A DNA stretch of 44,582 nt, from assembly GCA_944332205.1 (NCBI GenBank), contig CALVJN010000011.1, positions 1 through 44,582 on the forward strand, in the 5' to 3' direction. Position numbers and translations under genes: made by a program. Under the pieces are notes generated by a model that did not search any database, was not told where the DNA came from, and worked only from the letters and a program-made list of their open reading frames with translations. The DNA is from an uncultured Bacilli bacterium (GTDB lineage Bacteria; Bacillota_I; Bacilli_A; RF39; UBA660). Of this stretch, positions 4,336 through 44,582 are shown in pieces (position 1 is the stretch's first letter; every line of letters starts with the position of its first letter).

Positions 4336-4842
4336 ATGCGAATTCATCATTTTATTGAATATTATAACATAATAAAACCAATATTAGAAAACGAGGAATT
4401 TAGAAAAAGAAAGAAATTTATGCATCATGAAAATGAGAGTGTGTATAATCATTCATTAAAAGTATCATTGTTGTCATATAAAATTGCAAAAAAGATGGGC
4501 GTGGATTATAAAAGTGCTACTATAGGTGGCTTACTTCATGATTTTTATAGTAAACCATGGCAGGAAAATAATAATGAAAAAACTTCTTTATTTAAAATGC
4601 ATGGCTTTACACATGCTAGAGATGCTTACAAAAATTCAAAAAAATATTTTAATGACTTAATTACTCCAAAAATAAAAGATATTATAGTGAAGCATATGTT
4701 TCCACTCAATCCAATACCTCCTAAATATATTGAATCGTGGATTGTTACTGTTGCAGATAAAATGGTGTCGTCTACAGTGTTATTACATCCTACACAATAT
4801 CCAAAATATTTAGGTATTAAAAGGAGGAAAAATGAAGATTAA
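4336..4842 (+). CDS. HD-domain phosphohydrolase-like protein
   Basis: A 168-residue soluble protein with the HD-superfamily pattern: His in YNHSLKVS (about residue 39), the HD pair in GGLLHDFY (about 69-70), a further His in TTAR-like context (GFTHARDAY), and Asp in TVADKMVSS near residue 146. These are the metal ligands of phosphohydrolases that act on nucleotides or phosphoesters. The substrate is unknown. Its ATG follows the stop codon of the DUF1003 gene directly, so translation is probably coupled, and its last 11 bases overlap a small membrane-protein gene. YqeK (Ap4A hydrolase) has similar size and layout, but I do not see enough to call it that. Confidence 0.65.
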   Translation: MRIHHFIEYYNIIKPILENEEFRKRKKFMHHENESVYNHSLKVSLLSYKIAKKMGVDYKSATIGGLLHDFYSKPWQENNNEKTSLFKMHGFTHARDAYKNSKKYFNDLITPKIKDIIVKHMFPLNPIPPKYIESWIVTVADKMVSSTVLLHPTQYPKYLGIKRRKNED

Positions 4843-40318: not shown

Positions 40319-41467
40319 ATGAACGAAAATTCTATTCAGAATTATACTGAGAATATTGAATACAGTGGCGAAGACTTAATGAATTTAAATTCATTACCTG
40401 AAAAGGAAATATTTTTAAATTCTGCTTCTATAACAGATTTATGTTCTAATTGGAAGTCAAGAGTTAATAATCTCAATCTCACTTCAGAACGAATTACCAG
40501 TTCAGCTTTAAGATATTTTTCTTCATATGGTATTCTAGAAAATTATTGTGTATCTTTGTCTACAGCTATTAATTCAATAATTTTGACTATTAATAATATT
40601 AACGATAGTATTAATAATAGTAAGAATAGTCAGATTATGGTAGATGAGTCATATTCTAATAATAAAGTTATAAATAATGATTATACGACTAATTCAGTTA
40701 ACAATTCGTATAGAAAAGCCAATACTACAGTTAATAATAATTTTTATAATGCTAGTATAAATTCTAATCAAATGGGCGTTAATGATTTTAATTTGATAGA
40801 CTATATAGGAATATCGGTTGTCTTATCAAAGTTTCTATCTGCTTCAAATTCAACTTTTTTTGATATAGTTAATGATGATATCAAAATAGAGAATGTAAAA
40901 AAAGAATTACTAAATTCTATTAATATAACTGATGAATTGAAAAAAAGTTTACTTAATATGGATATTTCTGCTTTGAAACAAATATTGGTTAAACTATATT
41001 CTTCTGGTAATATAAATTTAATAAATTCAGAAAATATAGAGTTTTTGAATTCTTATTTTACAAAAATAGCAAATATTAATAATATTGATTATAATTCTTT
41101 GATAAGTAATGCAGAAAATCAACAACTTCTTTATAATAACTTTAATTATTTTAATAATGCTTTAAATTATATAGATTCAATTTCAAGTGATAATGTATTT
41201 AGGTTTAGAGAAAAAATATTAAATATATATGAAGGCAAAAATATTTATAATTTGGATTCTAATAGTGTTTCTGCTTTGAAAACTATGATTGATGTAGTAG
41301 CAGAAAACAACAATACTAGTTCTGAACAGATACTTAATGGAGATTCAAGAAACTATTTATTACCAATTATAAATTCAAAAGAATTTTTTTATATGTTCTG
41401 TAATTTAGATATGGAGAATAATCAAAAAATTTTATCTAATATTTTTTATAGGGAGGAAATAGAATAG
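40319..41467 (+). CDS. Unknown Asn-rich helical protein, first gene of WXG-like operon
   Basis: A 382-residue soluble protein with no signal peptide or membrane helix. Residues ~30-105 look like a helical hairpin (TDLCSNWKSRVNNL, then ALRYFSSYGI and AINSIILTINNINDSI). Residues ~105-155 form an Asn/Ser/Thr-rich linker, and ~160-382 are a second helical region with no known domain. Asn content is high throughout. ATG 40319 follows TTAGGTGG; the in-frame GTG at 40310 overlaps that site. Its stop overlaps the next start (TAGTG). The domain plan, a helical head, a linker and a unique tail, recalls type VII secretion (T7SS) substrates such as LXG proteins, but no LXG motif is seen. Function not known. 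Confidence 0.55.
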   Translation: MNENSIQNYTENIEYSGEDLMNLNSLPEKEIFLNSASITDLCSNWKSRVNNLNLTSERITSSALRYFSSYGILENYCVSLSTAINSIILTINNINDSINNSKNSQIMVDESYSNNKVINNDYTTNSVNNSYRKANTTVNNNFYNASINSNQMGVNDFNLIDYIGISVVLSKFLSASNSTFFDIVNDDIKIENVKKELLNSINITDELKKSLLNMDISALKQILVKLYSSGNINLINSENIEFLNSYFTKIANINNIDYNSLISNAENQQLLYNNFNYFNNALNYIDSISSDNVFRFREKILNIYEGKNIYNLDSNSVSALKTMIDVVAENNNTSSEQILNGDSRNYLLPIINSKEFFYMFCNLDMENNQKILSNIFYREEIE

Positions 41468-41778
41468 TGGCAAATATTTTTAAAATAAATTGTAAAGAAT
41501 TATACAAAATTGGAGCTTTTTTTAATTTGCAAGGTAATAACTTAAAAAATATTGTTGATAATATGAAAAAAACAAACGAAGATATTAAAGCTTTATGGAA
41601 TGGAATTGATTCTGAAATGTTTTATGAAAATTACAATGAATTTTTAGTGAGCATAAATGAAGTAGAACTTTTTATGATAGAGAAAGGAGAATTATTAAAA
41701 GAAATGGCGATTAAACATGGAAATATTGATAAAGATTTGTCTAGTAATTTAGAATGGAGAAGTAATAATGACAAGTAA
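41467..41778 (+). CDS. WXG100-like small protein
   Basis: A 103-residue all-helical protein starting at GTG 41467, with GGGAGG upstream. A central W-N-G (KALWNGIDSEMFYENY, about residue 44) sits at the turn between two predicted helices, the place of the WXG motif in ESAT-6/EsxA proteins. Length and layout fit WXG100 proteins, which are secreted as helical hairpin dimers by type VII systems. No YxxxD/E tail motif is seen. It overlaps the first gene by one to three bases and the third by 11 bases. No T7SS ATPase is encoded in this window. Confidence 0.6.
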   Translation: MANIFKINCKELYKIGAFFNLQGNNLKNIVDNMKKTNEDIKALWNGIDSEMFYENYNEFLVSINEVELFMIEKGELLKEMAIKHGNIDKDLSSNLEWRSNNDK

Positions 41779-42067
41779 TATAAAAATAGATTTCAATGGA
41801 TTAAAGGAGAAAATAGCAGAATTAAAAAAAGAAAATTTAAATATTGCTACATTGTTTGATAATGTTAAGACTAAAGCTAATCAAATACCAAATTTTTGGT
41901 TATCTCAAACAAGTGATGTAGTAATTAATGATTTGAAAAATTTGTATAATAAATTTGAAGAAATTATTGCTAGTAATGAGAAATATATATCATATTTAGA
42001 AACTGTTTGTAATAATTATATCAATACAGATAAGGACATAGAAACATTGATAAATAGTAATTTGTAA
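41768..42067 (+). CDS. WXG100-like small protein, second copy
   Basis: A 99-residue all-helical protein overlapping the preceding gene by 11 bases. Trp at about residue 43 (PNFWLSQTSDVV) sits at the hairpin turn, but the third position is Ser instead of Gly, a degenerate WXG. YINTD near residue 87-91 fits the YxxxD/E export motif at the C-terminal end. It may pair with the preceding WXG-like protein as a heterodimer. Terminated by the hairpin at 42066. Confidence 0.55.
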   Translation: MTSNIKIDFNGLKEKIAELKKENLNIATLFDNVKTKANQIPNFWLSQTSDVVINDLKNLYNKFEEIIASNEKYISYLETVCNNYINTDKDIETLINSNL

Positions 42068-42572: not shown

Positions 42573-42663
42573 GGAGACATACTCAAGAGGCCGAAGAGGC
42601 GCCCCTGCTAAGGGTGTAGACTGGGAAACTGGTGCGAGGGTTCAAATCCCTCTGTCTCCGCCA
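42573..42663 (+). tRNA. tRNA-Ser (GCT)
   Basis: Class II tRNA: GGAGACA (42573-42579) pairs with TGTCTCC (42653-42659). The anticodon GCT is at 42607-42609, the variable arm is long, and CCA is encoded at 42661-42663. It borders the accessory-looking end of the window; no copy of its 3' end is found downstream. Confidence 0.95.
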
Positions 42664-42860: not shown

Positions 42861-43700
42861 TCAATTTTTTAAATATTTCCGTATTAATTTTTTACGTTTT
42901 TCTGTTATCTCTGTATATTTTTTCCTTTGTAGAATAGGAATTTTAATTTTATATTTATTACTAATTATATCAAGTATATCATTTATATCTAATGTAGTTA
43001 TTATTTGTAATAAATTTTGTAATTCCGGATATTTAACTAATTCGTTGTAATTTGACATGTCAATTCCAAAAATACATGAACTATATTGTGGACTGTCTGT
43101 TGTTGATGATGTTATTGTGAGAGATTTTTCATAATCATAAAGTGGCGCTAATATAATACCATTTTTTTCTTTTTCAAAGAGAAAATTGTTTTTTGTTCTA
43201 TCTTGTTGATTCATATAAATGTCTAATGCAATCATTTTCAATAACTGCAATAATAATTTTTTATACATTTCATTTGATTTACAGTAATGTTTAAGATTTA
43301 TTAAGTTATTGAGCTGAGTACAATTAGCTTCTAAATATAAATCAGTAGGAACAATATATTTTTTTCTTTTTTGTCTAAAGTTTTCTGATAATAATCCATA
43401 TTCCATTTCTTTTTCACAATTAAGTGTACATCCAATTTGATAATTTATGGTATTTAATCCTAAAAAGGTTGCTAAAAATTCTCCAATTAGTTCATTTAGG
43501 AAATGCTCATCTGAATTTTGGTATTGAAGAAAATTTTTATAATAATACCATTTGTTATTTATATAAAACCAATTGTTCCATGTTTTTACAATTTGATAAT
43601 TTATATTTAATATTTTTGCTATTTTTTTGGGATTTTGTAAATTTTTTTTGTTAAAATATATAGGAGATGTTTCTGGCAATATTAGATTCTTGATTTTCAT
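42861..43700 (-). CDS. HipA-like kinase, no antitoxin partner seen
   Basis: A 279-residue protein with the catalytic features of the HipA-type kinase fold in its C-terminal half. ALDIYMNQQDRTKNNFLFE (about 158-176) gives the catalytic Asp167 and Asn171 or Asn172, and APLYDYEKSL carries the metal-binding Asp189. The usual N-terminal HipA domain is missing; residues 1-150 are Asn/Tyr/Lys-rich and unfamiliar. HipA toxins phosphorylate aminoacyl-tRNA synthetases and are blocked by HipB, but no HipB-like gene is next to it. ATG 43700 follows GGAGGA on the minus strand; it ends with TGA. A role outside toxin-antitoxin systems is equally possible. Confidence 0.6.
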   Translation of the reverse strand: MKIKNLILPETSPIYFNKKNLQNPKKIAKILNINYQIVKTWNNWFYINNKWYYYKNFLQYQNSDEHFLNELIGEFLATFLGLNTINYQIGCTLNCEKEMEYGLLSENFRQKRKKYIVPTDLYLEANCTQLNNLINLKHYCKSNEMYKKLLLQLLKMIALDIYMNQQDRTKNNFLFEKEKNGIILAPLYDYEKSLTITSSTTDSPQYSSCIFGIDMSNYNELVKYPELQNLLQIITTLDINDILDIISNKYKIKIPILQRKKYTEITEKRKKLIRKYLKN

Positions 43701-43798: not shown

Positions 43799-43827
43799 TT
43801 GAAATATAGTATATGTTATTATATAAT
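43799..43827 (+). promoter_or_regulatory. Promoter of the Lys-rich membrane protein gene
   Basis: TTGAAA (43799-43804) and TATAAT (43822-43827) are 17 bases apart. It faces away from the HipA-like gene. Confidence 0.7.
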
Positions 43828-43854
43828 ATGAGATATAATAGGAGGTCTTTTACT

Positions 43855-44382
43855 ATGGAAGAAAATACTAAAGGAGTTAATATTGATAAAGAAAAGAAAA
43901 AAGCAATAAGAAAAGAAGAAAAAAAAAGAAAAAAAAAGATTAATAAGGCATTTAAAAAATTAACATTAGAAAAAGAAAAAATTATTGAAATCAGAAAGAA
44001 AAGATATATATTTGAGGCTGTTACTATTATTATAATTGTAATATTTATGTTAATTTTATTATGTAATAGAACTTTTTTTAGGGAAAATTATAAAACAGAT
44101 TATATAGATGTAAATATTCCATTATTGAGCTTTTTTATTAAAGATGAGGATAATGAAATAGTGTTAAAGACTTTACGAAAGTCTGAATACTTAAGGGAAT
44201 ATTTTTCTAGTTATTTATCTAGTTTTCCTCGTTATAGTTGCGGTGATTTTGTGTTTTATTATGATAACTCTACTAATACAGCTATATATGATATTTCAAT
44301 TGAGAAGAATGGGATTATTAAAACAATAAAAATTAATTATATTCATGAAAATGCAAATGTGATATGCGATAATTTGTTATAA
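43855..44382 (+). CDS. Unknown Lys-rich single-span membrane protein
   Basis: A 175-residue protein. Residues ~10-48 are almost all Lys, Glu and Arg, a likely charged helix that could bind nucleic acid or acidic lipids. A membrane helix follows (about 52-70, AVTIIIIVIFMLILLC), and then an outside domain of about 100 residues with two Cys. ATG 43855 is taken because GGAGGT (43841-43846) precedes it; an upstream in-frame ATG at 43813 lies within the promoter. No family recognised. It is divergent from the HipA-like gene. Confidence 0.55.
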   Translation: MEENTKGVNIDKEKKKAIRKEEKKRKKKINKAFKKLTLEKEKIIEIRKKRYIFEAVTIIIIVIFMLILLCNRTFFRENYKTDYIDVNIPLLSFFIKDEDNEIVLKTLRKSEYLREYFSSYLSSFPRYSCGDFVFYYDNSTNTAIYDISIEKNGIIKTIKINYIHENANVICDNLL

Positions 44383-44495: not shown

Positions 44496-44512
44496 TAAAA
44501 GAAAGATGAACT

Positions 44513-44582
44513 TGTCAATAAAAAGTAGACACAAAAAGTTCTAATTAAACCCTAATTGAGTTCTATACTCGATTGGGGTTTT
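44513..44582 (-). mobile_element. Terminal part of an IS3-like insertion sequence
   Basis: From 44513 the sequence TGTCAATAAAAAGTAGACAC looks like an IS3-family terminal inverted repeat (outer TG). The minus strand inward of it carries the last codons of a transposase-like frame. The rest lies beyond the window, so the other end and target duplication cannot be checked. Confidence 0.55.
44541..44582 (-). CDS. Partial transposase C terminus (IS3-like)
   Basis: The minus strand reads KTPIEYRTQLGFN followed by a TAG at 44541-44543. The (S/T)P(I/V)EYR motif close to the C terminus is typical of IS3/IS150-group transposases. The start is outside the window. Confidence 0.5.
   Translation of the reverse strand, partial: KTPIEYRTQLGFN

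What the first reader, a model, noticed from the sequence alone, without database searches (positions are those of the whole stretch)
42861..43700. Solitary HipA-like kinase with an unusual N-terminal half
Seen: Asp-Arg...Asn catalytic loop and a later Asp motif in the order of HipA-type kinases, but no HipA N-terminal subdomain and no small HTH gene beside it. It sits with an unknown membrane protein between tRNA-Ser(GCT) and an insertion sequence. Inference: either an orphan toxin, a phage-defence kinase, or a kinase with a new target.
Basis: partly seen in the sequence, partly recalled or inferred. Interest (0 to 1): 0.6.

Follow-up and report, generated by a model that had tools for sequence, protein, structure and literature searches.

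The report
Lone HipA-like kinase without partner
This gene encodes a probably active kinase with the fold of the HipA growth-stopping toxins, but it stands alone without an antitoxin gene and has an odd front end, so it looks like a solitary offshoot of a known kinase superfamily whose target is unknown.

Summary
Window 42861-43700 (-) encodes a 279-aa kinase whose predicted fold (pLDDT 88.7, pTM 0.91) matches CtkA best (Z 16.3), then HipA and HipT. In 68 non-redundant relatives K55, D167 and D189 are invariant, E70 is kept in 66 and N172 in 60. It lacks the HipA N-terminal subdomain. Where HipA and CtkA relatives carry a Gly-rich loop, two models predict two short helices. It is solitary: among 257 neighbour ORFs of 69 loci no gene family has more than 8 members. 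The adjacent membrane gene is not a partner: it is in 11 of 12 genomes of the genus, a full-length kinase at this site in 2. The family is patchy (78 of 386 genomes) and under purifying selection; no relative was found in phage, plasmid or viral collections. Best reading: an autonomous accessory protein kinase outside the antitoxin-paired Hip families, substrate unknown. Toxin or phage-defence roles are not excluded. New variant of a known kind. A more striking side observation, a ToxN-HipA fusion, is listed in passing.

The parts
42861..43700 (-). Solitary HipA/CtkA-fold kinase, 279 aa
   Evidence: ORF; HipA_C 15.1 bits, sub-threshold; fold model pLDDT 88.7, pTM 0.91; CtkA Z 16.3; 68 non-redundant relatives aligned
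43572..43700 (-). Residues 1-43: predicted short strand and two helices (24-31, 35-41) where CtkA/HipA relatives have a Gly-rich loop
   Evidence: second model, of a 28%-identical member, shows the same; Gly counts
43536..43538 (-). K55, predicted ATP-binding Lys
   Evidence: 68 of 68 non-redundant relatives
43491..43493 (-). E70, predicted helix-C Glu (NELIGE)
   Evidence: 66 of 68
43185..43202 (-). Catalytic loop D167-R168-T-K-N-N172
   Evidence: D167 68 of 68, R168 63 of 68, N172 60 of 68
43134..43136 (-). D189, predicted Mg-binding Asp (LAPLYD)
   Evidence: 68 of 68
42573..42663 (+). tRNA-Ser(GCT), conserved left neighbour of the site; not part of the system
43813..44382 (+). Core-genome small membrane protein, right neighbour; not a partner
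   Evidence: 11 of 12 genomes of the genus; kinase-less sites

Best explanation
A catalytically competent, free-standing Ser/Thr protein kinase of the HipA/CtkA fold that works without an antitoxin: an accessory regulatory kinase gained at a chromosomal site between a tRNA-Ser and a core gene. ATP would bind between the lobes through K55/E70, with D167/N172/D189 doing catalysis. A helical hairpin (residues 24-41) takes the place of the Gly-rich loop, so the HipA style of control (phosphorylation of a Ser beside that loop, a HipS-like lid, a HipB partner) should not apply, and activity is probably set by expression and by the hairpin itself. Shown or strongly predicted: fold, active-site conservation, absence of a partner gene, purifying selection, patchy chromosomal distribution. 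Inferred: that it is active, that its substrate is an intracellular protein, and that its role is regulatory.
For: Fold; a second family member modelled independently gives the same top hits. Active site across 68 non-redundant relatives. No recurrent partner: 257 neighbour ORFs (+-2 genes) of 69 kinase-bearing loci, largest cluster 8, next 5; only 8 of the close same-strand neighbours (gap <=60) are <=150 aa and they are mostly unlike each other. In a Pfam scan of 46 neighbours of part of the clade, of the 25 families shown (77 in all) only DUF192 (3), Flp_Fap (3) and Vut_1 (2) had more than one member. As a contrast, CtkA-type relatives do have partners: 3 of 3 scanned neighbours resemble PDC-M03B and one kinase follows a Cro/C1 HTH gene. 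Within subgroups the flanking genes are conserved (a radical-SAM-like gene at 5 loci, DUF192/Flp at 3, Vut_1 at 3), i.e. stable residence. dN/dS 0.07-0.38 in the 5 kinase pairs. No relatives in phages, plasmids or IMG/VR.
Against: Activity and substrate are untested. Patchiness (78 of 386 genomes of the family), tandem copies (7 of 69 loci) and faster change than flanking genes (45% identity against 86, 71 and 64% for three flanking genes between two genomes) also fit a defence or toxin gene. 8 of 68 relatives lack N172 (5 E, 2 S, 1 T), so some members may be inactive or use other chemistry. The Gly-rich-loop replacement rests on predicted models and Gly counts, not on a solved structure; 33 of 68 relatives have one Gly and 4 have two in the region.
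Confidence: 0.5

Rival explanations
1. A single-gene abortive-infection or other phage-defence kinase.
For: Weak partial match to PDC-M03A, E 1.6e-9 over residues 63-200; patchy, tandem, fast-evolving; site next to a tRNA. A HipA-like kinase plus DUF3037 protects against a phage (PMC12548924, passages read).
Against: The PDC-M03B half is not beside it. Neighbours are mainly housekeeping genes; the PADLOC hits shown for 46 neighbours are mostly HerA models hit by one protein, which alone do not make a defence island. No repeat of the tRNA end was found.
Confidence: 0.22
2. A toxin whose antitoxin is unlinked, an RNA, or a gene too short or too varied to be seen.
For: Well-studied relatives by fold (HipA, HipT) are toxins. 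The family occurs as tandem copies at 7 of 69 loci.
Against: No recurring small same-strand neighbour; no Rfam RNA other than tRNAs above cut-off near the gene; many members lie singly among housekeeping genes.
Confidence: 0.13
3. A kinase of a lipid or small molecule rather than of protein (PI4K-II-like), or a non-phosphorylating enzyme such as an AMPylase on this fold.
For: PI4KII matches the fold (Z 12.1-12.7) and 2 of 15 relatives hit the PI3_PI4_kinase model.
Against: CtkA, HipA and HipT rank above it in both fold searches and HipA_C is the commonest Pfam hit (10 of 15).
Confidence: 0.1

Closest known systems
CtkA (Helicobacter pylori; PDB 3akj/3akk/3akl)
   Same: Best fold match over residues 11-279 (Z 16.3, rmsd 3.9, 242 aligned); core kinase without N-subdomain-1; similar length.
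   Different: 14% identity; the window protein finds no PDB chain by sequence whereas a true CtkA relative in the same bacterial class does (E 1e-80). CtkA-type relatives carry a YGG or YSG segment before the Lys; the window protein does not. CtkA acts on host cells and is tied to a T4SS (PMC5536186, listing and start of abstract only); nothing like that is seen here.
HipT of HipBST (PDB 8ezr, 7ab4)
   Same: Core Hip kinase without N-subdomain-1; best sequence-profile hit in PDB (8ezr, E 0.0036); fold match.
   Different: No HipS- or HipB-like neighbour; no Gly-rich loop with an adjacent autophosphorylated Ser.
HipA of HipBA (PDB 4pu4, 2wiu)
   Same: Kinase core and order of catalytic residues (Z 12-14.5).
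   Different: Lacks N-subdomain-1, Gly-rich loop and HipB.
YjjJ/HipH and HipL (monocistronic Hip kinases; PMC8262856, abstract and passages)
   Same: Encoded alone.
   Different: Those carry an HTH, or HipS-like plus HIRAN domains, in the same chain; here Pfam finds no such domain and only 54 residues precede the catalytic Lys.
PADLOC candidate PDC-M03 (A+B)
   Same: Kinase half matches weakly.
   Different: Partner PDC-M03B absent.

Membership tests
HipA/HipBA toxin-antitoxin | HipA-type kinase core fold | tested here: met
   but HipA_C 15.1 bits is below the Pfam cut-off of 30.5
HipA/HipBA toxin-antitoxin | N-subdomain-1 (Couple_hipA) | tested here: not met
   54 residues before K55; no such Pfam hit at E<=1
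HipA/HipBA toxin-antitoxin | Gly-rich loop before the catalytic Lys | tested here: not met
   no Gly in the 44 residues before K55; helices modelled there. Based on prediction, not a solved structure
HipA/HipBA toxin-antitoxin | Adjacent HipB-like HTH gene | tested here: not met
   neighbours; family-wide
HipT/HipBST | HipS and HipB genes upstream | tested here: not met
   a divergent membrane gene lies upstream, found without the kinase in most of the genus
CtkA | Same fold and domain extent | tested here: met
   Z 16.3 over 11-279
CtkA | Sequence-level membership (CtkA clade) | tested here: not met
   no PDB hit by phmmer; CtkA-type rows form a separate clade, support 100/100, in the opposite half of the tree (midpoint root, ten open forks)
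CtkA | Secretion and action on host cells | not tested
   none
PDC-M03 defence candidate | Kinase component M03A | tested here: inconclusive
   E 1.6e-9, residues 63-200 only; PADLOC cut-offs were not shown
PDC-M03 defence candidate | Adjacent component M03B | tested here: not met
   no M03B hit among 4 window neighbours
Phosphatidylinositol 4-kinase II | Lipid-kinase activity | not testable with these tools
   fold similarity only

The most novel reading that the evidence does not exclude
A distinct Hip-superfamily branch that gave up both the antitoxin and the Gly-rich loop: a helical hairpin built into the N-lobe replaces the loop and gates the ATP site, so the kinase carries its own off-switch and acts alone on a new substrate. 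A survey that required a Gly-rich loop and an adjacent antitoxin gene (PMC8262856, data-sampling passage) would have left such kinases out by design.
Probability: 0.25. Interest if true: 0.55.

Novelty: new variant of a known kind. Interest (0 to 1): 0.35.

Why it matters
Hip kinases are known mostly as antitoxin-paired toxins. A family that is widespread in one group of uncultured Bacilli-like bacteria (44 of 150 genera sampled), keeps the active site and has neither a partner gene nor the usual Gly-rich loop would show that this fold also works as a stand-alone kinase, and gives a small, single-domain target for asking how such a kinase is kept in check.

Tried and rejected
Membrane-protein partner: rejected, since the neighbour is core and the site is kinase-less in most of the genus. 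Conserved small partner: looked for at 69 loci, not found. Phage, plasmid or viral carriage: no matches (these test close to moderate relatives only). Duplicated tRNA end as an integration mark: no 9-12-mer of the tRNA was found in the rest of the window. Antitoxin RNA near the gene: Rfam found only the two tRNAs and two antisense plastid-family matches far below their cut-offs. HTH DNA-binding reading of residues 22-41: no HTH Pfam hit at E<=1, not pursued. Foldseek against viral models: one match at E<=0.001, a PI3/4-kinase-like phage protein. Literature searches with no papers.

Caveats on counts: the 70 loci given to include one contig taken twice (L018 and L126 are both the 7,413-base contig), and L180 gave no kinase ORF. 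The genomes behind overlap. The tree left out L015 and L020 as near-duplicates. Not all of the hits were fetched: 60 places were taken. Some one search hits are longer relatives outside the window's own clade. In the genus, G003 also has a match (E 1.7e-6), but it is a longer relative at another place, not counted in the 2 of 12.

Full report
The ORF at 42861-43700 (-) encodes 279 aa and has a GGAGG six bases before its ATG. By sequence it is only marginally recognised: HipA_C 15.1 bits against a cut-off of 30.5, no NCBIfam family above its cut-off, no PDB chain at E<=10. Relatives settle it. Nine of 97 genomes searched, the window's own included, carry one, and 12 loci came from named genome records (MAGs labelled Bacilli, Bacillales, Tenericutes, Mollicutes, Firmicutes, Onthousia). 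A profile of 11 rows finds HipT of Legionella as its best PDB hit (E 0.0036), and 10 of 15 family members hit HipA_C at E<=0.1, best 5.9e-6.

Fold. A model from 13 sequences has pLDDT 88.7 and pTM 0.91. Foldseek ranks CtkA first (E 1.1e-6), with HipT and HipA among the next; VIA-align gives CtkA Z 16.3, HipA up to 14.5, HipT 13.8, and also CotH 13.0 and PI4KII 12.7. A second model, of L016 (28% identical), has pLDDT 85.8 and again CtkA, HipA and HipT on top. Profile-profile comparison with the CtkA-type clade and with a longer HipA-type clade aligns the same catalytic stretches (96.4 and 97.9% probability).

Active site. Over 68 non-redundant rows K55, D167 and D189 are invariant, E70 is kept in 66, R168 in 63, N172 in 60. 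The exceptions at N172 are 5 E, 2 S and 1 T. Rows were found by profile search, so some conservation is built in. The roles given to these residues (ATP Lys, helix-C Glu, catalytic Asp/Asn, Mg Asp) follow from the known HipA and protein-kinase pattern.

N-terminus. Both models put two short helices (24-31 and 35-41 in the window protein; 21-31 and 35-39 in L016) before the strand that ends in the Lys. CtkA-type relatives have YGG or YSG segments there, and the long clade has TDG, SDG or ADG. In 31 of 68 window-type rows the stretch K-40 to K-12 has no Gly, in 33 one, in 4 two. So 'no Gly-rich loop' is good for the window protein and likely, not proven, for the family.

Genomic site. In G005, the other genome of the genus with a full-length copy, the gene has the same place: tRNA-Ser(GCT), kinase on the - strand, then the small membrane protein (the further genes, ankyrin-like and MiaB-like, and the names Lon and UppP, are recognised by me and come from no call). 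In 8 genomes the tRNA-Ser lies beside the membrane gene; 2 have the kinase, 1 (G010) has another small gene and 5 (G002, G003, G006, G007, G008) have no ORF of 60 aa or more between. The membrane protein is in 11 of 12 genomes. So the kinase is an accessory insertion and the membrane protein a bystander. The window's own genome has no other HipA_C-like locus.

Neighbours across the family. 60 loci were fetched by place and joined with 10 earlier ones; 69 of 70 held a kinase ORF, giving 257 neighbour ORFs within two genes; the largest similarity cluster has 8 members (it reads like an ABC transporter), then three clusters of 5. Of 68 full-length kinases, 31 have a same-strand upstream ORF within 60 bases, but only 6 of these are <=150 aa; 13 have such a downstream ORF, 2 small. 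That is not the layout of a toxin-antitoxin pair. By contrast, CtkA-type relatives in the same class have a neighbour resembling PDC-M03B (3 of 3 scanned, best E per protein 0.025, 2.6e-5 and 5.5e-6) and one has a Cro/C1 HTH gene ending 10 bases upstream.

Distribution and selection. 78 of 386 genomes of the taxonomic family, 44 of 150 genera, match at E<=1e-15; 28 of 296 across the class at E<=1e-3. More than one kinase ORF occurs at 7 of 69 loci. The kinase changes faster than its neighbours between G000 and G005 (45.1% identity against Lon 86.2, UppP 70.9, membrane protein 64.0) and in two other comparisons (74.6 against 87.8; 57.1 against 79.4), but not between L014 and L015 (94.0 against 94.1). 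dN/dS is 0.070, 0.118, 0.283, 0.295 and 0.381 in the five kinase pairs; dS is over 1 in three and 0.06 in the last. This fits purifying selection.

Placement. In a tree of 34 rows the window protein joins L002 (94/93) inside a 17-row half that holds other short solitary kinases and a four-row longer group; CtkA-type rows (100/100) and the long clade (100/99) fall in the other half. The split has support 91/98 and ten forks are open, so this is a grouping, not a firm phylogeny.

Literature. The main survey of Hip kinases (PMC8262856; abstract and passages) kept only sequences with all four motifs, including the Gly-rich loop, and an adjacent putative antitoxin gene, so this family would not have been included. 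I found no description of it in searches, which cover open-licence papers only; of the 12 papers listed I opened four. HipA-like kinases in other settings: with DUF3037 in phage defence (PMC12548924, passages), in gut phages (PMC8008677, passages), in Legionella (PMC9758233, passages).

Verdict. It is a solitary member of the HipA/CtkA fold superfamily, probably active, not linked to the membrane gene. Whether it regulates, poisons or defends cannot be told from sequence.

Noticed in passing
L085 2583-4346 (-) and upstream 4360-4480; L192, L193, L194, L195: A ToxN/AbiQ RNase domain (Pfam ToxN 64.7, 68.1 and 56.6 bits, cut-off 25) fused in one chain to a long HipA-like kinase (HipA_C 24.0-25.7 bits, below its cut-off 30.5). 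Of 43 genomes searched, one match spans both parts in 4 (G156, G666, G677, and G663 with one internal stop); G676 has the two parts as neighbouring matches. Upstream of all 5 lie two or more copies of a 34-35-base repeat and then a hairpin with a T-rich tail, the layout of a ToxI-type antitoxin RNA (hairpin read by eye); Rfam has no match. This would be a type III toxin-antitoxin with a two-headed toxin. A paper search for ToxN, HipA, fusion and type III toxin-antitoxin listed five papers, reviews or a database by their titles (listing only).
   Followed up: partly
L091 5090-6359 (+): A close relative of H. pylori CtkA (E 1e-80) in a genome of the window's class directly follows a Cro/C1-type HTH gene; other CtkA-type relatives (L084, L087, L088) sit beside a PDC-M03B-like gene. 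CtkA may descend from a paired toxin or defence system.
   Followed up: partly
window 41467-42067 (+): Two small WXG100/ESAT-6-like genes in a row (NF035934 E 4.4e-11 for the second, below its cut-off) before tRNA-Lys; no such genes at that place in G005.
   Followed up: no
window 44506-44582: The window's last 77 bases recur identically at the ends of two other contigs of the genome, as an IS end would.
   Followed up: partly
L018, L074, L165, L169, L170, L172, L175: Divergent kinases of the family with E, S or T in place of the catalytic-loop Asn, two of them in tandem at L165: possible pseudokinases or altered chemistry.
   Followed up: no
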